Source of the DNA: Geobacter sp. AOG2
GTDB taxonomy: Bacteria; Desulfobacterota; Desulfuromonadia; Geobacterales; Pseudopelobacteraceae
Direction: 5' to 3'
Length of the DNA: 64,000 nucleotides
NCBI RefSeq assembly: GCF_019972295.1
Contig: NZ_BLJA01000001.1
Location: 2,546,158-2,610,157, forward strand
Shown here: piece after piece, positions 362-57,317 of the stretch
Layout: every line of letters begins with the position of its first letter
Position numbering within the stretch: position 1 is the first letter of the stretch
Made by a program: the position numbers and the translations under genes
The notes under the pieces: generated by a model
Seen by the model: only the letters and a program-made list of their open reading frames with translations
The model's database searches: none
What the model was told of the DNA's origin: nothing

Positions 362-415
362 GGTTCTTGCCTCCTCCGGTTTGTGGTGTGTGATTTGTAC
401 TACATTACGGGCGGG

Positions 416-444
416 GATAAAACAGAAAAAGCCGCACAGGGATG
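416..444. repeat. Half-copy of a terminator-type repeat (left flank of the island)
   Basis: The sequence GATAAAACAGAAAAAGCCGC and the bases after it match, with about three differences, the left half of the hairpin terminator at 3363-3392, but the right arm of the hairpin is missing here. A third full copy lies at 6155-6190. The half copy and the full copy bracket the AT-rich cassette island. Confidence 0.5.
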
Positions 445-627: not shown

Positions 628-690
628 GTCCAACACGCGGCGGCACGCGGTCGTCGCTCCGCTCCGCCGGTGCGCCTTATGACGTTGAAC
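628..690 (+). other. attC-like recombination site 1
   Basis: R'' is GTCCAAC (628-634) and R' is GTTGAAC (684-690), complementary apart from one G-T pair. Inside them GGCGGCAC (639-646) pairs with GTGCGCC (670-676), leaving one extrahelical G. This is the R''-L''-L'-R' layout of integron attC sites, including the TTATGAC spacer before R'. The start codon of the first cassette gene follows 25 bases later. Confidence 0.65.
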
Positions 691-714
691 AATTAGAAAT
701 ACGAAGGGAGTCAT

Positions 715-1086
715 ATGACGGATCATTTGGATATTGTGCTGCCGATTATTCTGATAATTATTGCATTCCTGTTAAAGCTTTTCATGGACAGAAATGCAAC
801 ACTACCACATTTCATAAAATCACTTTATGAACTTCCCGTTGATATTGTCTTTTTGGGTCTTACTTTCACAACGGCATTTACCATATCTGAAGCAAGCCAT
901 ATGGCAAAGGGTATGTTCTACTTGTTTGTTTTTTTAGTAATTGCATTAATTAACGTAGTTCTTTGGCGAAGATCAACTACGCTATACGAACAGACTTCTT
1001 ATAGCTGGGCGTCATCTCTATTTGTACTTAACGCTACAATTGCAGGTTATGTCCTTTACAGATCAGTCATTATAATAGCATCTTAA
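715..1086 (+). CDS. Small hydrophobic membrane protein, cassette gene 1
   Basis: The 123-residue product is almost entirely hydrophobic, with three to four predicted membrane segments (about residues 8-24, 42-60, 66-84 and 100-120) separated by short charged loops. I do not recognise a family. The start is supported by AAGGGAG five bases upstream. It is followed after nine bases by the TIR/deoxyribosyltransferase-like gene, itself with AAGGAG, so the two are one transcription unit within a single cassette. Base composition is very AT-rich compared with the chromosome. By analogy with other two-gene defence units, it could be a membrane partner or effector for the downstream sensor, but this is inference. 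Confidence 0.75.
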   Translation: MTDHLDIVLPIILIIIAFLLKLFMDRNATLPHFIKSLYELPVDIVFLGLTFTTAFTISEASHMAKGMFYLFVFLVIALINVVLWRRSTTLYEQTSYSWASSLFVLNATIAGYVLYRSVIIIAS

Positions 1087-1095
1087 GGAGTATAT

Positions 1096-2259
1096 ATGTT
1101 TGAATTTGCTTATAAAGATGTTTTTATGCTTACACTGCTTGCATTATTATTCACTTTTGTTGTTATTGTATTAACATATCTCATGAAGCATATGCAAAGA
1201 CAGAACAAAGAGCTTATAAATACAATGCGTGATTCATATGAAAAACAAATATATATGATTAATGATAACCTAACAGCATCAATGGATAGATGGCGTGATG
1301 TAAATCATCTTTTATTGAGTTCACAAGCAGTACAACCTGCTGTTGATCCATCTCAGAAAGTACGTTTTTCATCATTTTTAAAAGCAAATGGTGTCCGATC
1401 TGAGGAAATAGATCCAGATCCTAATCTTGTTTTTGTTCTAACACCTTTCAATAATAGATTTGATAATGTGTTTGAAACAATACGTAACACATGCCTGGAT
1501 GTCGGCCTTAAATGCTATAGAGGAGATGAGGAATTTATTCAAGGCGACATCTTGCAACATATTCTAAAAGTAATATGTAAAGCTTCTATTATTATCGCAA
1601 ATATTGAGGGCAGGAATCCGAATGTATTTTACGAACTTGGCCTTGCCCACGCAATGGACAAGAGTACTCTACTAATTTCAAAGACAGTAGATGCGCTTCC
1701 AATTGATATCAAATCAAAGAAAATAATTGTATATCAAGAATCAAATGATCTAAAAAGCAAGTTGAAAGACGAACTTTTAAAGCTTGCCTACATAAAGAAG
1801 AATAATAACAAACAAATAAACAAAAATAATTATCAAAATAACTTAGAGGTTACAGGCGATAAATACTTTACTGGTAAAGTATATTATGAACTTGAAAATG
1901 CCAGTAATGCGGCGCAACAGCAGACAAAGCCGCTATTTATTGTAATCTACGACAATAATAAGATGACTCGAAGCAAATTAGATCACTCCCTTGGATATTT
2001 TTTGGAGTATGAGACCACTAAGGATCTAGTAAACAATAATTTCATCCAGGTATTAGGAGAAGCCGCAGACCCTAATTTTAGCAAGCTCGTGCCAGAAGAC
2101 GACCCCTTAGAAAACTGTCTTCTTGTAATCATGTCACCTAATGGCTATATATTGAGACGTGAGGGTGTTTATGCAAACCCTGATGAAGGACTTAAAAGGG
2201 TTAGAGAATCAATTAAAAGTTGGACCGAAGCATATAAAATAAATACTGAGTTCAACTAG
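1096..2259 (+). CDS. Membrane-anchored TIR/deoxyribosyltransferase-like protein with thioredoxin-like tail
   Basis: Domains in order: one transmembrane helix (about residues 8-30); an amphipathic, probably coiled-coil linker (31-80); a nucleotide-binding Rossmann-like domain (about 110-235); a low-complexity Asn/Lys linker (about 232-250); and a C-terminal domain (about 275-385) that looks thioredoxin-like but lacks a CxxC motif. The central domain has the family hallmarks VFVLTPFNNRFDNV, CYRGDEEF, IIANIEGRNPNVFYELGLAH: this is the nucleoside 2-deoxyribosyltransferase/TIR-like fold in which the Glu of FYELG is the expected catalytic residue. Related domains degrade or sense nucleotides or NAD in bacterial immunity (known of the wider fold; activity here is inferred). 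The stop codon overlaps the R'' box of the next attC site, as is common for integron cassettes. Confidence 0.8.
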   Translation: MFEFAYKDVFMLTLLALLFTFVVIVLTYLMKHMQRQNKELINTMRDSYEKQIYMINDNLTASMDRWRDVNHLLLSSQAVQPAVDPSQKVRFSSFLKANGVRSEEIDPDPNLVFVLTPFNNRFDNVFETIRNTCLDVGLKCYRGDEEFIQGDILQHILKVICKASIIIANIEGRNPNVFYELGLAHAMDKSTLLISKTVDALPIDIKSKKIIVYQESNDLKSKLKDELLKLAYIKKNNNKQINKNNYQNNLEVTGDKYFTGKVYYELENASNAAQQQTKPLFIVIYDNNKMTRSKLDHSLGYFLEYETTKDLVNNNFIQVLGEAADPNFSKLVPEDDPLENCLLVIMSPNGYILRREGVYANPDEGLKRVRESIKSWTEAYKINTEFN

Positions 2260-2318
2260 CGGCAGCACTGGACCGCGGGAAAATGCCCCGCTGTCCGGTG
2301 TGCCTTATGGCGTTGGGC
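2250..2318 (+). other. attC-like recombination site 2
   Basis: R'' is GTTCAAC (2250-2256, overlapping the stop codon of the preceding gene) and R' is GTTGGGC (2312-2318). The L arms pair almost perfectly: GGCAGCACTGGAC (2261-2273) against GTCCGGTGTGCC (2293-2304), with a single bulged G, and the stem continues through CGCGGG/CCCCGC to a short loop. This is the clearest attC fold of the three. Confidence 0.75.
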
Positions 2319-2329
2319 AGGAGAATTAT

Positions 2330-3118
2330 ATGAAAGTTTTACAGGATCAACTATTTGACAAAATAGCTGTTCCAAATTCATTTGAGGAAATTATTGAGAT
2401 CGCTCAAACCACCATTCCTGACGCTTTAAATTACAATGTTAGGTTTTGGCGCGGGCAGAGTAACATTGAATGGCCAGTTCATAGCTCTGCATACAGACGA
2501 TTAGCCATACGTGAAAAACAAGTAACCGAAAAAGCCATGCAAGCGTACGAAAAAAGACTTCTCCAAGAGGCTTCACATAAGGGGTACCGTTTTGTAGATG
2601 GCAAGCTACTGTCGGACTTGGAACTCCTAGCGAGACTTCAACATCATGGAGCAGCAACGCGCCTTGTTGATTTCACAAAGAACCTACTTGTGGCTTTATG
2701 GTTCTGTGTAGCGTCAGATGAAAAAAAGACAGGCTCCTTGATTGGCCTACACTGCTTCTACGTAGGAGGAACCGAAGGTACACTCAAAGTAAATCCATAT
2801 GAGGAAGAAGTTGAAGATCTCGAAAAATATGATTACCCAAGGGTATGGGAACCACCTGCTGTTACAAACAGAGTTGCGGCCCAACATGCATTGTTCCTGT
2901 ACAGTGACGTAATTTCTGCGAAGCATGGCAGTCTCAAATTTCCTGAAAATGAAAATGGTGCTTTAATTATTGTTATTAGCCCACAGTTAAAAGCCAAAAC
3001 CAAGGTTATTCTTCAGCAAATATTTGATGTCCGGCATCTGACACTTTTTCCGGATCTCGATGGGTTCTCGTTTACTAATAATTGCACATTAGATCCATAC
3101 AATAACATGAGGTGGTAA
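2330..3118 (+). CDS. FRG domain-containing protein, cassette gene 3
   Basis: The product (262 residues) contains an FRG domain: the signature VRFWRGQ is near residue 40, followed by LARLQHHGAATRLVDFTKN and then the hydrophobic stretch LLVALWFCVA, the standard motif order of the family. FRG proteins are frequent in mobile and defence loci; their biochemical role is not settled. I start at ATG 2330 because GGCAGGAG ends six bases upstream; an in-frame GTG at 2300 lies inside the attC stem and would have no ribosome site. The gene occupies its own cassette between attC sites 2 and 3 and is AT-rich. A link with the TIR/NDT-like gene is inferred from adjacency only. Confidence 0.85.
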   Translation: MKVLQDQLFDKIAVPNSFEEIIEIAQTTIPDALNYNVRFWRGQSNIEWPVHSSAYRRLAIREKQVTEKAMQAYEKRLLQEASHKGYRFVDGKLLSDLELLARLQHHGAATRLVDFTKNLLVALWFCVASDEKKTGSLIGLHCFYVGGTEGTLKVNPYEEEVEDLEKYDYPRVWEPPAVTNRVAAQHALFLYSDVISAKHGSLKFPENENGALIIVISPQLKAKTKVILQQIFDVRHLTLFPDLDGFSFTNNCTLDPYNNMRW

Positions 3119-3125
3119 AGCGAAG

Positions 3126-3190
3126 TCATAACCCTCGGTGGCAGACGGTCTCCGCTAACGCTCCGCCGCTGCGCCAAAGCCCCGTTGGTC
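3126..3190 (+). other. attC-like recombination site 3 (degenerate)
   Basis: The inner arms pair well: GGTGGCAGACGG (3137-3148) against CCGCTGCGCC (3166-3175) with two bulges. R' is GTTGGTC (3184-3190), which departs from the GTTRRRY consensus, and R'' (about 3126-3132) pairs poorly. Its position right after the FRG gene supports the reading as a decayed attC. Confidence 0.5.
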
Positions 3191-3205
3191 AAGGACAAAA
3201 GAGAG

Positions 3206-3367
3206 ATGAATCCAGAAATAATAACACTTCATAAACATTGGTGTACCGCAGATGCGGTAAAACAATTCATATCAGCAGACGTGCCAGAAAAAGGAAGCGA
3301 GGAGTATCCCCAATGGTTCAAAAACTTGGGGAACACAGCTTCTGTACTACATAACGGCCTGCGATAA
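3206..3367 (+). CDS. Small hypothetical protein in the last cassette
   Basis: A 53-residue open frame starts at ATG 3206, 16 bases after the R' box of the third attC-like site, and encodes a soluble polypeptide (ITLHKHWCTADAVKQFI near the start). The ribosome site is weak. It ends beside the terminator at 3374-3402 and may be a fragment of a longer cassette protein cut off when the island joined the chromosome. Family not recognised. Confidence 0.4.
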   Translation: MNPEIITLHKHWCTADAVKQFISADVPEKGSEEYPQWFKNLGNTASVLHNGLR

Positions 3368-3370
3368 AAC

Positions 3371-3403
3371 AAAAAAAGCCGCGCAGGGGATGTGCGGCTT
3401 TTC
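3371..3403 (-). terminator. Rho-independent terminator of the double-cubane operon
   Basis: AGCCGCGCA (3377-3385) pairs with TGTGCGGCT (3391-3399). On the minus strand the hairpin is followed by seven T residues, correctly placed downstream of the rhodanese gene. Four T residues on the plus side mean it may also stop transcripts leaving the cassette island. Confidence 0.75.
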
Positions 3404-4688: not shown

Positions 4689-5981
4689 TTATCCCCGGAT
4701 CTGCTCGATGAAGGCTTCAACCCGTGTCTGCAGTTGACCGACATCGTCGGGGGAATAGTCGCTTTCTATGGCCATGAACGGTATGCCGCGCCGTTCGCAT
4801 GCCTCGCGCAGCTTGACCGCCTCGATGTTGTAGGTATGGCAGAACTGCAGGCAATAATCGATGATGCCCTGGGCTCCCGACTGCTCGTATTCCTTGAGGA
4901 CCTGGTCGATGCGGTCGTCGTTGGGGGTAAAGCAGGAACAGTCGATTTTCATGTAGCGTTCCGTCAACCGCTCCAACTGCTGGTCGACCGATGTTGAGCC
5001 TTCGTCGATCAAATCCTTGTAGTAACGGGTGCCGATGCAGCTCTCTTCGTTGACCACCACGGCGCCGGAGGTTTCGATGATGTTGTGCAGTTTCCAGTTG
5101 GGCAGCGCCATGGGAGTGCCGGATACGAGGATGCGCGGCGTTGTCGCCGGAGCAACGGCAACGCCCTCCTCAATCCGTTTTTCCAGTTCTTCGCAGAGGG
5201 CAAGGACCTTTTCCGTGAAGCGAACCGGTTCGTCATAGAAGGCGATCTGCTCGATCAGCAACATGTCCTTGCCGCTGATGGGGGACGGATTGGCGTGACG
5301 CAGCGTATTCAAGCGCTGCAATGCGGCACGCTTGCCGTTGATAACCTTTATTGCGGCGGCGATGTCGTCGAATCCGGTTTCGGTACCGCTTATCCTGTCC
5401 ACCGCAACCTTGAAGTCCTTGACCTCCTCAACCCAGAGATGCTTGTCCCGCTCCCGCTTCATCTGGGGGATTTCCATGACATGGGTCGGGACGTGCCGGT
5501 CGAGCAGTTCCCAGGTCTTTTTCTTGGCGTCGCAGGTTGTTTCGCCGTAGACCAGGTCCACGGCCTGGAAGTACGGGCAGATCTTGCCGACCTTGAAACC
5601 GAAGGCCGATTTGACCATAGGGCAGATATTGCGGGGAAGGGTCTTCTCGGCATCGGCAATGGAGCCCTGGGCGCCGCCGCACAGGCCGACGCAGACGCCG
5701 CCGGCGGCTACGATCAACTCTTCCGGGACATACACGCAGAAGGTGCCGATGACCGGCTTGCCGCTTTCCTTCACGGCCATGATTTCATCGATCCTGCCGG
5801 TATGGATGTTTTCGACCATGCCGTCGAAGTACGCCATAGCCGCCGGGCGGTTCTTCTGGGAGAGAAAGATGTTGGTGTATGCCGTTGTCAGCATCGGCGG
5901 CATGCCGGAAAACCGGGCTACGTCCATGCCCAACCTCTCCCACAGTTCCGGGTCCGATTTAACGTTAAAGGCCTCGCTCAT
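4689..5981 (-). CDS. 2-hydroxyacyl-CoA dehydratase-like double-cubane cluster protein
   Basis: The 430-residue protein belongs to the HgdB/FldC/BcrB superfamily but stands alone instead of as an alpha/beta pair. Cysteines occur in GTFCVYVPEE, CVGLCGG, RNICPMVKSAFG, KICPYFQ, ETTCDAKKKTWELL, EESCIGTRYY, CSCFTPNDDR and YCLQFCHTY. The single-gene arrangement with an adjacent activator fits the double-cubane cluster proteins, in which a [8Fe-9S] cluster reduces small molecules at very low potential (known for the Carboxydothermus homologue). The physiological substrate is unknown. The ATG follows GAGGAGG, and a promoter is visible at 6016-6043. A true 2-hydroxyacyl-CoA dehydratase is less likely because no second subunit gene is present. 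Confidence 0.88.
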   Translation of the reverse strand: MSEAFNVKSDPELWERLGMDVARFSGMPPMLTTAYTNIFLSQKNRPAAMAYFDGMVENIHTGRIDEIMAVKESGKPVIGTFCVYVPEELIVAAGGVCVGLCGGAQGSIADAEKTLPRNICPMVKSAFGFKVGKICPYFQAVDLVYGETTCDAKKKTWELLDRHVPTHVMEIPQMKRERDKHLWVEEVKDFKVAVDRISGTETGFDDIAAAIKVINGKRAALQRLNTLRHANPSPISGKDMLLIEQIAFYDEPVRFTEKVLALCEELEKRIEEGVAVAPATTPRILVSGTPMALPNWKLHNIIETSGAVVVNEESCIGTRYYKDLIDEGSTSVDQQLERLTERYMKIDCSCFTPNDDRIDQVLKEYEQSGAQGIIDYCLQFCHTYNIEAVKLREACERRGIPFMAIESDYSPDDVGQLQTRVEAFIEQIRG

Positions 5982-54505: not shown

Positions 54506-55750
54506 TCATGAGTGTTGCTGTTGAATTTTCGTGCTTGGTAAAAATGCCGTTACAACTCCCAATAACGGCAAGTACGCACAGTGTTTGTAGACCCAAACGA
54601 TTCCGTACACATCGGCCAGACTTCCCAATCCAGCAGCAGCAATACCACCGATGCCGAACATCAGGCCAAACATTACGCCTGAAACCATACCGACCCGACC
54701 CGGTACTGTCTCTTGTGCATATACCACTAATGCAGAAAATGCGGATGACATAATTAAGCCAATAGCGATGGCAAGAATAGCTGTCCAGAAAAGGTTCGCA
54801 TGTGGGAGTAGTAGTGCAAATGGCGCTACTCCCAGAAAGGAAACCCAGATCACCGCTTTGCGACCTATTTTATCACCCACGGGGCCACCCGCAAAAGTTC
54901 CCGCTGCAATGGCCGCCAAAAACGCAAATAGATAAAGTTGTGACTCCTGAATCGGCAAGCCGAAACGCTGGATCAGATAGAAGGTGAAATAGTTGGTAAA
55001 CGCCGCTATGTAAACAAACTTGGCAAACATTAAGACTGCAATCACCACCAGCGCACGTATGATCGTGTTTTGGCTAAGATGAGAAGAAAGAGTTTTGCCG
55101 GTGGCCGCTGTCAGCGTTAGATGGTGCCGCAACCTCCAACCCGTTATTTTGAACAGCACCACTATTGCCAACAGTGCAAAGAGCATAAACCAGCCAATAG
55201 CTGCTTGCCCGTGCGGTATTACAATTGCTGCAACCATAAGTGGCCCAATTGCAGAACCGGTGTTGCCACCAACCTGAAAAGTTGATTGAGCCGTGCCAAA
55301 TCGACCACCTGAGGCTAACCGTGCAACACGGGATGCTTCTGGGTGAAATGTTGACGATCCCACGCCGATGAACACGGATGCCACAAGTAGCATTGGGTAG
55401 GTGCTGGCAAGTGACAATAAGCCAAGTCCAACGAGTGTCGTCAACATTCCCATCGGCAGTAGATAGGGTTTCGGGTGTTTGTCTGTGTATAATCCGATCC
55501 ACGGTTGGAGCAAGGAGGCAGTGATTTGATAGACTAACGAAATCCAGCCGATTTGTGTAAAACCAAGTGAGAACTTTGATTTCAACATTGGGTAGATTGC
55601 CGGTAGCACCGCTTGTATCAGATCGTTCAACAGGTGAGCGAAGGTCACTGCGCCAAGAATGCTAATGGCAAGTTTTTGAATCTGATTACCTGAAACTGCG
55701 TCTGGAGAGATTGAAACGCTGCGGTCAAGATTAGTTGATTCGTTTGCCAT
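54506..55750 (-). CDS. MFS transporter, Fsr (fosmidomycin resistance)-like
   Basis: The 414-residue protein has twelve predicted helices. The loop 2-3 motif is LYTDKHPKPYLLPMG; FHPEASRVARLASGGRFGTA and GNTGSAIGPLMVAA resemble Fsr-type exporters; the second-half motif is GGPVGDKIGRKAV. Fsr-like pumps export drugs or metabolites; substrate unknown. ATG 55750 is used. It is divergent from an AraC regulator, 95 bases away, suggesting control by that protein. Base composition is less GC-rich than the chromosome. Confidence 0.88.
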   Translation of the reverse strand: MANESTNLDRSVSISPDAVSGNQIQKLAISILGAVTFAHLLNDLIQAVLPAIYPMLKSKFSLGFTQIGWISLVYQITASLLQPWIGLYTDKHPKPYLLPMGMLTTLVGLGLLSLASTYPMLLVASVFIGVGSSTFHPEASRVARLASGGRFGTAQSTFQVGGNTGSAIGPLMVAAIVIPHGQAAIGWFMLFALLAIVVLFKITGWRLRHHLTLTAATGKTLSSHLSQNTIIRALVVIAVLMFAKFVYIAAFTNYFTFYLIQRFGLPIQESQLYLFAFLAAIAAGTFAGGPVGDKIGRKAVIWVSFLGVAPFALLLPHANLFWTAILAIAIGLIMSSAFSALVVYAQETVPGRVGMVSGVMFGLMFGIGGIAAAGLGSLADVYGIVWVYKHCAYLPLLGVVTAFLPSTKIQQQHS

Positions 55751-55815
55751 GGATGTAACTCCGCTCAATGTTAGGTGTTACTATCATACGACTTTCATAA
55801 TGTGTTGTATCACGC

Positions 55816-55821
55816 TATAAT
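55816..55821 (+). promoter_or_regulatory. Candidate -10 box for the AraC-type regulator gene
   Basis: A perfect TATAAT lies 24 bases upstream of the ATG; no good -35 box is seen, as is common for activator-dependent promoters. On the other strand TATGAT (55783-55788) could serve the MFS gene. Confidence 0.35.
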
Positions 55822-55845
55822 GACAAAAACTGTAGAGTTTGGGAC

Positions 55846-56619
55846 ATGTCAGACTATCTTATCTGGAAAAATCTTGATCTGCACAATTCAGATCGCCCAA
55901 TTGTGGTACTGAAGAAGAACTATTCTGACGGTGCTTCAACAGGATGGCATTCCCACCCACGAGGGCAGCTTCTTTATGCAATTGAAGGTGTAATGCTCGT
56001 GCAGTCGGCTGAGGGGTCATGGGTGGTGCCATCGAATCGAGCGTTATGGATTACAGCTGGCCTTAACCATGAAGTGAAAATGTCCGGTGATGTGAAGATG
56101 CGCACTGTCTACATTGACGAGGTAAAGATCGAGGCACTTCCGGAGAAGACTTGCGTTATAAACGTCTCGCCGCTGTTACGTGAACTCATTGTGGCAGCGG
56201 TTCAAGTATCGCAGAGCTATTCGGAAGAAAGTAGAGATGGGCGGCTTATGCGCCTACTGGTCGATGAGTTGCGAATATCTGATGTGTTGTCTCTCCATCT
56301 TCCCATGCCACATGATGTGCGCATTAAATTTATCTGTGAATCACTGATTGATCAACCTTCTGATTCCTACACTGCCGCCCAATGGTCAAGGCAATTGGGA
56401 GTGACAACCAAAACCGTGCATCGGCTTTTTCTGAAAGAAACTGGCATGACCTTCTCTCAATGGCGTGAACAGGCCAGACTTTTGTATGCGCTTCGTAAAA
56501 TTGCCAGTGGTGAGCGGATTATTGATATTGCCTTTGATTGTGGTTATGCAAGTCAAAGTGCATTTACTGCTATGTTCCGGCGACATTTTGGCATAACTCC
56601 GTCGAACTTCTATCGCTAG
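55846..56619 (+). CDS. AraC-family transcriptional regulator with cupin sensor
   Basis: The 257-residue product has an N-terminal cupin domain (GWHSHPRGQLLYAIEGVMLV, residues about 33-52) and two C-terminal helix-turn-helix motifs (YTAAQWSRQLGVTTKTVHRL and RIIDIAFDCGYASQSAFTAM, then FRRHFGITPSNFYR). It likely senses a small compound and controls the divergent MFS gene, as in YeaM/NimR-type pairs. ATG 55846 follows TTTGGGAC. Confidence 0.92.
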   Translation: MSDYLIWKNLDLHNSDRPIVVLKKNYSDGASTGWHSHPRGQLLYAIEGVMLVQSAEGSWVVPSNRALWITAGLNHEVKMSGDVKMRTVYIDEVKIEALPEKTCVINVSPLLRELIVAAVQVSQSYSEESRDGRLMRLLVDELRISDVLSLHLPMPHDVRIKFICESLIDQPSDSYTAAQWSRQLGVTTKTVHRLFLKETGMTFSQWREQARLLYALRKIASGERIIDIAFDCGYASQSAFTAMFRRHFGITPSNFYR

Positions 56620-56654
56620 GGTAAAATCTGGAAAATCTGGGGACATAATACAAA

Positions 56655-57317
56655 TTACTTGGGCATTGCAGGCCTGCCTGCCCGCTTTTTCTTTAACTCC
56701 CTACCAGTGATTCCCTCTACCACCTCAACGAATTCTTCATCACCCGCCGGCCTGCCTGTGCGCGTTGTCTCGCGCAGCAGTTTCAAATCCTCTTCCTCTC
56801 CTGAACTTAGAAATTCCCGCCAATCCGTTATCAATCCCAGTAGCGTCCGGTCTTTCACCAAAGGGTCATAATCAATCATTCCGCACTGAAAGCAGGCGCT
56901 TGACCAAGGGTATTCCCATGGTGTCTTCGCCATGCCGGCAACTACCGGATTCCATGCCACATAACGCGCAGCCGCCAGCAGATGCCGCTGGTCGAGCACG
57001 CACGAACTGAATCGTCCCTGAAACAGGTAGCCGCGAACCCCCTGGGAGAAGTTTTTCATGCGTGTGTAACGGCGATGTGCCTCTCCGAAACCCTGGGCAA
57101 GCGATGTCTCGCTGTGAGGTACTGCGATGAAGTGGACGTGATTTGTCATGAGACACCAGGACAGGATGTCCAGTCCGAAACGAGCCGACTCCTCGGATAA
57201 GAAGGAGAGGTATGCGAACCGGTCCGCGTCGGAATGGAATACATCCATGGAGCGGACCCCCCGCTGGGTGACGTGGTGGGGGTAACCTGGAGCAACGATT
57301 CGAGAAATGCGGGCCAT
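56655..57317 (-). CDS. REP-associated tyrosine transposase (Y1/HUH)
   Basis: The 220-residue protein starts MARISRIVAPGYPHHVTQRG, has the HUH metal motif in TNHVHFIAVP, the catalytic Tyr region in RYTRMKNFSQGVRGYLFQGR, and RYVAWNPVVAGMAKTPWEYP typical of RayT/TnpA-REP proteins. These mobilise or maintain REP palindromes by single-strand cleavage. It is intact, with REP sequences on both sides; its 3' end is duplicated at 54085-54298. Confidence 0.92.
   Translation of the reverse strand: MARISRIVAPGYPHHVTQRGVRSMDVFHSDADRFAYLSFLSEESARFGLDILSWCLMTNHVHFIAVPHSETSLAQGFGEAHRRYTRMKNFSQGVRGYLFQGRFSSCVLDQRHLLAAARYVAWNPVVAGMAKTPWEYPWSSACFQCGMIDYDPLVKDRTLLGLITDWREFLSSGEEEDLKLLRETTRTGRPAGDEEFVEVVEGITGRELKKKRAGRPAMPK

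What the first reader, a model, noticed from the sequence alone, without database searches (positions are those of the whole stretch)
1096..2259. Unusual fusion: membrane helix, TIR/NDT-like domain and thioredoxin-like tail
Seen: the tail (KPLFIVIYDNNKMTRSKLDH, then LENCLLVIMSPNGYILRREG) has the strand-helix spacing of a thioredoxin fold but no CxxC, joined by an Asn/Lys linker to a nucleotide-processing domain that is itself membrane-tethered. Such a catalytically dead Trx-like module could be a sensor of a phage protein or redox state (inference).
Basis: inference. Interest (0 to 1): 0.6.

Follow-up and report, generated by a model that had tools for sequence, protein, structure and literature searches.

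The report
Membrane TIR operon with thioredoxin-like tail
A foreign mobile gene cassette in this bacterium encodes a two-gene, membrane-anchored enzyme system that looks like phage defence, and its enzyme carries a thioredoxin-shaped but redox-dead tail also found on other defence-type proteins (a kinase and a DNA-cutting enzyme), which suggests that the tail is an interchangeable control part.

Summary
ORF 1096-2259 is one protein: TM helix and coiled coil (1-75), TIR/NDT-fold domain (108-232) with the superfamily Glu (E180), Asn/Lys linker, and a C-terminal thioredoxin fold (258-380; VIA Z 12.8) with no CxxC and no invariant cysteine. The tail is not a repeat of the first domain. (1) It is the second gene of an operon with a small 3-TM protein (715-1086). 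The same pair without the tail occurs in four viral contigs; the small gene precedes 5 of 5 membrane-TIR genes and 0 of 41 other TIR relatives. (2) The operon lies exactly between the two best attC-like sites of the window: a 34%-GC integron cassette in a genome without detectable IntI. (3) The tail is a rare mobile domain, always C-terminal, also on PD-T4-6-type kinases, Mrr-type nucleases and bare membrane anchors. Best reading: a membrane-bound NAD+/nucleotide-cleaving defence system with a borrowed, redox-dead input or docking module. A redox sensor is unlikely; a phage-protein sensor is plausible but untested. No second TM-TIR-tail protein was found.

The parts
628..690 (+). attC-like site at the left end of the cassette (R'' GTCCAAC, R' GTTGAAC)
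   Evidence: Best score of all candidates in 64 kb (12.5; next non-attC 8.0); its 3' end occurs only twice in the genome, at the two sites. Its single-strand fold does not beat shuffles.
685..2312 (+). inferred integron gene cassette (cut at G^TT of both R' boxes)
   Evidence: 34.3% GC over 700-2260 against 60.0% for the window; attC-like sites in the same orientation on both sides
715..1086 (+). P0002, small 3-TM protein, first gene of the operon
   Evidence: A profile of four small TM proteins lying before tail-less membrane-TIR genes finds this ORF alone among 339 window ORFs, E 3.7e-23
1096..2259 (+). P0001, TM - coiled coil - TIR/NDT-fold - linker - Trx-fold protein, 387 aa
1123..1188 (+). 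TM helix of P0001 (residues 10-31)
   Evidence: Sequence; helix 3-59 in the model; collinear TM helix in L056-L059
1417..1791 (+). TIR/NDT-fold domain (residues 108-232)
   Evidence: VIA Z 14.0 to DNPH1, 13.0 to SPARTA TIR; PADLOC TIR effector E 5e-10; 34-43% identity to L056-L059
1633..1635 (+). E180 codon, the superfamily's active-site Glu position
   Evidence: Invariant in relatives; lines up with the Glu of YELG in Rcl/DNPH1
1792..1851 (+). Asn/Lys-rich linker (residues 233-252)
   Evidence: Low confidence in the model (segment 236-252 under 50); tail-less relatives end just before it
1867..2241 (+). Trx-fold tail without CxxC (residues 258-382)
   Evidence: PADLOC PD-T4-6 C-terminus E 1.4e-23
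2250..2318 (+). attC-like site at the right end of the cassette (R'' GTTCAAC overlapping the end of P0001, R' GTTGGGC)
   Evidence: Second best score in 64 kb (12.0); folds better than shuffles, z -2.4; unique 3' end
2330..3118 (+). neighbouring cassette gene: FRG-domain protein (PADLOC PDC-S15)
   Evidence: PF08867 E 6e-18; PDC-S15 E 5e-33

Best explanation
A mobile integron cassette (about 685-2312) carries a two-gene, membrane-bound, TIR-type defence operon. The 3-TM protein and the TM-TIR protein act together at the inner membrane. On infection the TIR/NDT-fold domain clusters and cleaves NAD+ or a related nucleotide through E180. This either starves the cell or makes a signal that opens the 3-TM partner, and the infected cell stops before phages are released. 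The C-terminal thioredoxin-like domain is a borrowed, redox-dead protein-binding module that gives this copy an extra or different input (trigger recognition or docking); related tails would do that job for a kinase and a nuclease. Shown: anatomy, folds, operon conservation, attC-like flanks, modularity of the tail. Inferred: defence function, cleavage of NAD+ or a nucleotide, the role of the partner, the role of the tail.
For: Operon: the same small-TM + TM-TIR pair in four viral contigs and 5 of 5 against 0 of 41. Fold and E180. Tail shared with a full-length PD-T4-6-type kinase between P2-like genes S and V, Mrr-type nucleases, and TM-only proteins. Cassette; neighbour FRG/PDC-S15. Precedents: phage TIR genes next to 2TM SLATT proteins (PMC9503650); TIR plus TM proteins of P2-like phage AC1 protect E. 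coli (PMC9122126).
Against: No activity is shown for either gene or for the tail. The structural ranking cannot separate TIR from NDT/DNPH1. The partner matches no SLATT or other Pfam model. The TM-TIR-tail fusion is a singleton here. Tail-less relatives show that the core works without a tail, so the tail may be accessory.
Confidence: 0.55

Rival explanations
1. The tail is an assembly or docking module and not a sensor: it makes homotypic contacts or binds a common host or membrane partner that clusters the effector, while infection is sensed elsewhere (the 3-TM protein or the coiled coil).
For: The TM-TIR core exists without the tail. TM-only proteins with the tail have no effector of their own, as an adaptor would. 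Redox-dead Trx-fold domains such as UAS and AGR2 are among the structural matches.
Against: The tail sits on soluble kinases and nucleases too, where a membrane partner is less obvious. No direct test.
Confidence: 0.25
2. The first domain is a nucleoside/nucleotide N-glycosidase or deoxyribosyltransferase (DNPH1/NDT-like) that destroys phage or cell nucleotides, not a TIR-type NADase.
For: DNPH1 has the top VIA Z (14.0), NDTs and MilB follow; weak profile matches to Rcl and NDT and to PF05014.
Against: Z values of TIR domains are within about 1-1.5; the Asp of Rcl (LQQAD) is Ser165 here and not conserved; PF05014 is under its cut-off (14.1 against 28.8); PADLOC's best first-domain model is a TIR effector.
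Confidence: 0.2
3. Chance fusion or decaying cassette: a tail was appended by recombination and has no function in this protein, in an array that has lost its integrase.
For: Singleton architecture; no IntI over cut-off; only two recognisable attC-like sites; the tail has a long branch.
Against: Both genes are intact with good ribosome-binding sites; the tail keeps the family's motifs (SKL..SLG, TTK, DDPLENC, VYANPDEGLKRVR).
Confidence: 0.12

Closest known systems
PD-T4-6 (Ser/Thr-kinase defence protein; PADLOC PDLC04063)
   Same: Same C-terminal domain (E 1.4e-23 to the model; 42% identity to the L034 kinase).
   Different: No kinase domain; effector is a membrane-bound TIR/NDT-fold domain with an operon partner.
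Tail-less 3-TM + TM-TIR pairs in viral contigs (L056-L059)
   Same: Same two-gene order, homologous partner, collinear TM helix, coiled coil and TIR domain.
   Different: They end before the linker and have no Trx-like tail; they lie in phage contigs, not in an integron cassette.
TIR-SLATT pairs of phages (PMC9503650)
   Same: TIR-family gene beside a small membrane protein, phage-borne.
   Different: Here the TIR protein is itself membrane-anchored, and the partner has 3-4 TM helices and no SLATT match.
TIR plus TM-protein system of P2-like phage AC1 (PMC9122126)
   Same: TIR protein with TM proteins in one operon, shown to protect E. coli.
   Different: Three genes; no relative of P0001 from a P2-like phage appeared in the phage search, so kinship was not established.
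Mrr-type nuclease with the same tail (Rhizobium oryzihabitans P0004)
   Same: Tail 52.8% identical; closest tail in the tree.
   Different: Soluble PD-(D/E)XK-type nuclease (PF04471) in place of the TM-TIR part.
DNPH1/Rcl and SPARTA/plant TIR domains
   Same: Fold of residues 108-232 (Z 14.0 and 12.5-13.0); active-site Glu in the same place.
   Different: 16-19% identity; the Asp of Rcl is not conserved; membrane-anchored.
Integron defence cassettes of Vibrio and mobile integrons (cited in PMC12444791)
   Same: Defence-type gene between attC-like sites.
   Different: Two-gene cassette in a short array of a genome without a detectable integrase.

Membership tests
PD-T4-6 | N-terminal Ser/Thr protein kinase domain | tested here: not met
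   PDLC04063 matches only model positions 414-559; no kinase in Pfam
PD-T4-6 | C-terminal domain of the PDLC04063 model | tested here: met
   E 1.4e-23, residues 233-377
Thioredoxin superfamily (fold) | Trx-fold order of strands and helices | tested here: met
Thioredoxin (redox enzyme) | CxxC active site | tested here: not met
   no CxxC or CxxS in 14 tails
TIR-type effector | TIR fold with the active-site Glu | tested here: met
   the fold is shared with NDT/DNPH1
TIR-type effector | NAD+ cleavage | not testable with these tools
   needs an assay
Nucleoside 2-deoxyribosyltransferase (PF05014) | Pfam gathering score | tested here: not met
   14.1 bits against 28.8
DNPH1/Rcl | active-site Asp of LQQAD | tested here: not met
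   Ser165 at that place, Ser or Arg in relatives (alignments)
CBASS | CD-NTase gene in the operon | tested here: not met
   Neighbours are P0002, the FRG gene and host genes
Thoeris | ThsA partner gene | tested here: not met
   The only operon partner is a 123-aa 3-TM protein without family match
TIR-SLATT pair | SLATT domain in the partner | tested here: inconclusive
   No Pfam match of P0002 under E 0.05; a diverged SLATT cannot be excluded
AC1 TIR/TM system of P2-like phages | homology of its proteins | tested here: inconclusive
   No P2-like hit; whether AC1 is in the collection was not checked
Integron gene cassette | attC sites in the same orientation on both sides | tested here: met
   Two best-scoring sites of the window, unique in the genome; recombination not tested
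Complete integron | IntI integrase in the genome | tested here: not met
   Only XerC/D-like matches far under the TIGR02249 cut-off

The most novel reading that the evidence does not exclude
The tail founds an undescribed domain family: a redox-dead thioredoxin-fold input module that mobile elements plug onto unrelated effectors (kinase, Mrr nuclease, membrane TIR) and that recognises one conserved infection cue, so that sensor and effector evolve as interchangeable parts across prophages, conjugative elements and integron cassettes.
Probability: 0.3. Interest if true: 0.75.

Novelty: new variant of a known kind. Interest (0 to 1): 0.55.

Why it matters
The C-terminal domain shared with PD-T4-6 matched no Pfam family here and has no assigned role that I could find. 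The same Trx-fold domain on three unrelated effectors and on bare membrane anchors makes 'what does it bind or sense?' testable with one isolated domain and several readouts. The conserved 3-TM/TM-TIR operon is a candidate defence system that PADLOC 2.0.0 does not describe as such, and its cassette setting adds to the picture of integrons as stores of defence genes.

Tried and rejected
Single-sequence AF2 failed (pLDDT 40.6). Mixed alignments misplaced tail or TIR rows; the one used (A11) still misplaces about 20 C-terminal residues of the TIR rows, a limit of the model. P0001 matched no PDB sequence; HRas matches of the tail profile look like chance. NCBIfam matches (rpsD, CT795) are far under cut-off. 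Rfam gave nothing. A P0001 scan of viral contigs found none. The small TM family was too diverged to scan for. L034 kinase DNA had no match in E. coli genomes. The many PDLC04063 matches in the class lie in the kinase part of that model, except in the own genome. The empty-site comparison failed because genus relatives are too diverged. A third attC-like end at 3128-3197, seen by eye, did not pass score or fold. The attC scan of other tail loci was mostly noise, except for repeats around the L039 gene. The idea that Neptunomonas and Advenella tail genes share a contig with IntI was not supported: contig lengths differ. Papers: no description of the tail or of the two-gene pair was found; most subscription papers are not in the library.

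Full report
Observation. The 387-aa ORF at 1096-2259 is real and intact. It starts 10 bp after the stop of a 123-aa gene (715-1086), with AAGGAG in front. Residues 10-31 form a TM helix, followed by a coiled coil to about residue 75, a TIR/NDT-fold domain (108-232), an Asn/Lys linker (233-252) and a tail (258-382).

Fold of the tail. Without an alignment AF2 fails. With an alignment of loci fetched here (A11) the mean pLDDT is 74.9 and the tail mostly 85-93, with the thioredoxin order of strands and helices. VIA-align gives Z 12.8 (3f9u, residues 258-380, rmsd 2.4 over 119) and 12.6 (3ira). Foldseek lists AGR2/AGR3, ERp19, the UBXD7 UAS domain, a Thermus thioredoxin and DsbD-C. None of 14 tails has CxxC or CxxS, no cysteine is invariant, and four tails have none. 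The tail is unrelated to the TIR domain by profile comparison. The redox idea is disfavoured.

Fold of the first domain. VIA-align ranks DNPH1/Rcl first (Z 14.0), with SPARTA TIR at 13.0, MilB at 12.8, an NDT at 12.7, the SfSTING entry 7un8 at 12.5 and the plant RUN1 TIR at 12.5. These belong to one superfamily (TIR-DrHyd-SLOG in PMC9503650), and the differences are too small to choose between them. E180 in NPNVFYELG lines up with the Glu of YELG in Rcl and is invariant in relatives. The Asp of Rcl in LQQAD is Ser165 here (alignment; that this Asp is catalytic in DNPH1 is my own knowledge). PADLOC's model for this domain is a TIR effector (E 5e-10). PF05014 stays under its cut-off.

The operon. 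A scan of viral contigs for the TIR domain gave 45 loci. Four of them (L056-L059) are collinear with residues 1-232 of the window protein, TM helix and coiled coil included (34-43% identity), and they stop where the linker begins. Each follows a small 3-4 TM protein. A profile of those four small proteins finds the product of 715-1086 alone among 339 window ORFs (E 3.7e-23). Counting by script, and by eye for L059, whose start the script set too early, 5 of 5 membrane-TIR genes have the partner and 0 of 41 other TIR relatives do (L062, which the script flagged as TM but which looks soluble, is counted in neither group). The window thus holds a conserved two-gene system plus a tail.

The tail as a mobile module. 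PADLOC matched the tail to the C-terminus of PD-T4-6 (E 1.4e-23). Relatives (36-52% identity to the window tail) occur on full-length PD-T4-6-type kinases (L034, E 1.8e-200, between P2-like genes S and V; L045 and L046); on Mrr-type nucleases (Rhizobium plasmid; Gluconacetobacter L037 next to a kinase gene; Sphingomonas L041, split by a frame change); and on TM-only proteins (L038, L039, L040, L043, L044; L101 beside P2-like D and Ogr genes). L038 and L043 lie beside conjugative-transfer-type genes (that DUF2976 and DUF3487 belong to conjugative elements is my own knowledge). The tail is always C-terminal. In a tree the window tail falls with the Mrr tails (93/98, but on a long branch, so the place is unsure). 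The domain is rare: in samples of 395, 369 and 385 genomes only the seed genomes had it. No second TM-TIR-tail protein was found. The contig scans used exact peptide patterns, so this absence is weak evidence.

The cassette. The operon has 34.3% GC against 60.0% for the window. A score for attC features (R'' RYYYAAC, R' GTTRRRY, inner complementarity) puts the sites at 628-690 and 2250-2318 first and second in the whole 64 kb (12.5 and 12.0; next 8.0). Shuffles of the island reach 11.0 at the 95th percentile and 14.0 at most, so either site alone is only moderately significant; the pair, in one orientation and exactly flanking the operon, is what convinces. Their shared 3' end occurs nowhere else in the genome with up to 3 mismatches. 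The second site overlaps the end of the gene and folds well (z -2.4); the first does not beat shuffles. The genome has no IntI over cut-off, so this would be a short array without its integrase. Of nine genomes with relatives of the tail, four carry IntI, and the L039 gene lies between repeats that look like attC sites. The next gene encodes an FRG-domain protein, a PADLOC defence candidate.

Mechanism. TIR genes paired with small membrane proteins are known in phages, where the partner is predicted to be a signal-regulated effector of membrane permeability (TIR-SLATT, PMC9503650). A TIR plus TM-protein system of P2-like phage AC1 protects E. coli (PMC9122126). By analogy, the window pair most likely responds to infection at the membrane and cleaves NAD+ or a related nucleotide. 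The tail, redox-dead and shared by three unrelated effectors, is most simply a protein-binding input or docking module. That it senses a phage protein is possible and untested.

Novelty. Each half has known kin. The two-gene membrane-TIR pair, the tail family and the fusion appear undescribed in what could be searched. I file it as a new variant of a known kind (TIR-type defence), with a possible new domain family in the tail.

Noticed in passing
window 2330-3118: FRG-domain protein (PADLOC PDC-S15, E 5e-33) directly after the TIR cassette: a second defence candidate in the same foreign segment.
   Followed up: partly
window 396-442 and 3346-3391: A direct repeat of about 45 bp flanks the whole foreign segment; it may mark how the array was inserted or a shared terminator/promoter stretch.
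   Followed up: partly
window 3206-3364: A 53-aa ORF after the FRG gene has no Pfam match and may be the remnant of a further cassette.
   Followed up: partly
PADLOC model PDLC04063 (PD-T4-6): The model scores 1e-23 or better on the tail alone, so proteins without a kinase (nucleases, TM-only, TIR) can be called PD-T4-6 by mistake.
   Followed up: yes
L041 4001-5381 (Sphingomonas): The Mrr part and the tail are in different frames near 5000: a broken or mis-assembled Mrr-tail gene.
   Followed up: partly
L037 3344-4306 (Gluconacetobacter): A separate Ser/Thr kinase gene (PF00069) lies directly before the Mrr-tail gene, although the tail elsewhere is fused to a kinase.
   Followed up: no
L040 4153-5372 (Methylococcaceae): A small TM gene lies 5 bp before a TM-tail gene: a two-membrane-protein pair with the tail and no known effector.
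   Followed up: no
window 54506-57317: A low-GC stretch with a probable MFS transporter, an AraC-type regulator and a REP-type transposase gene (names are my reading of the translations).
   Followed up: no
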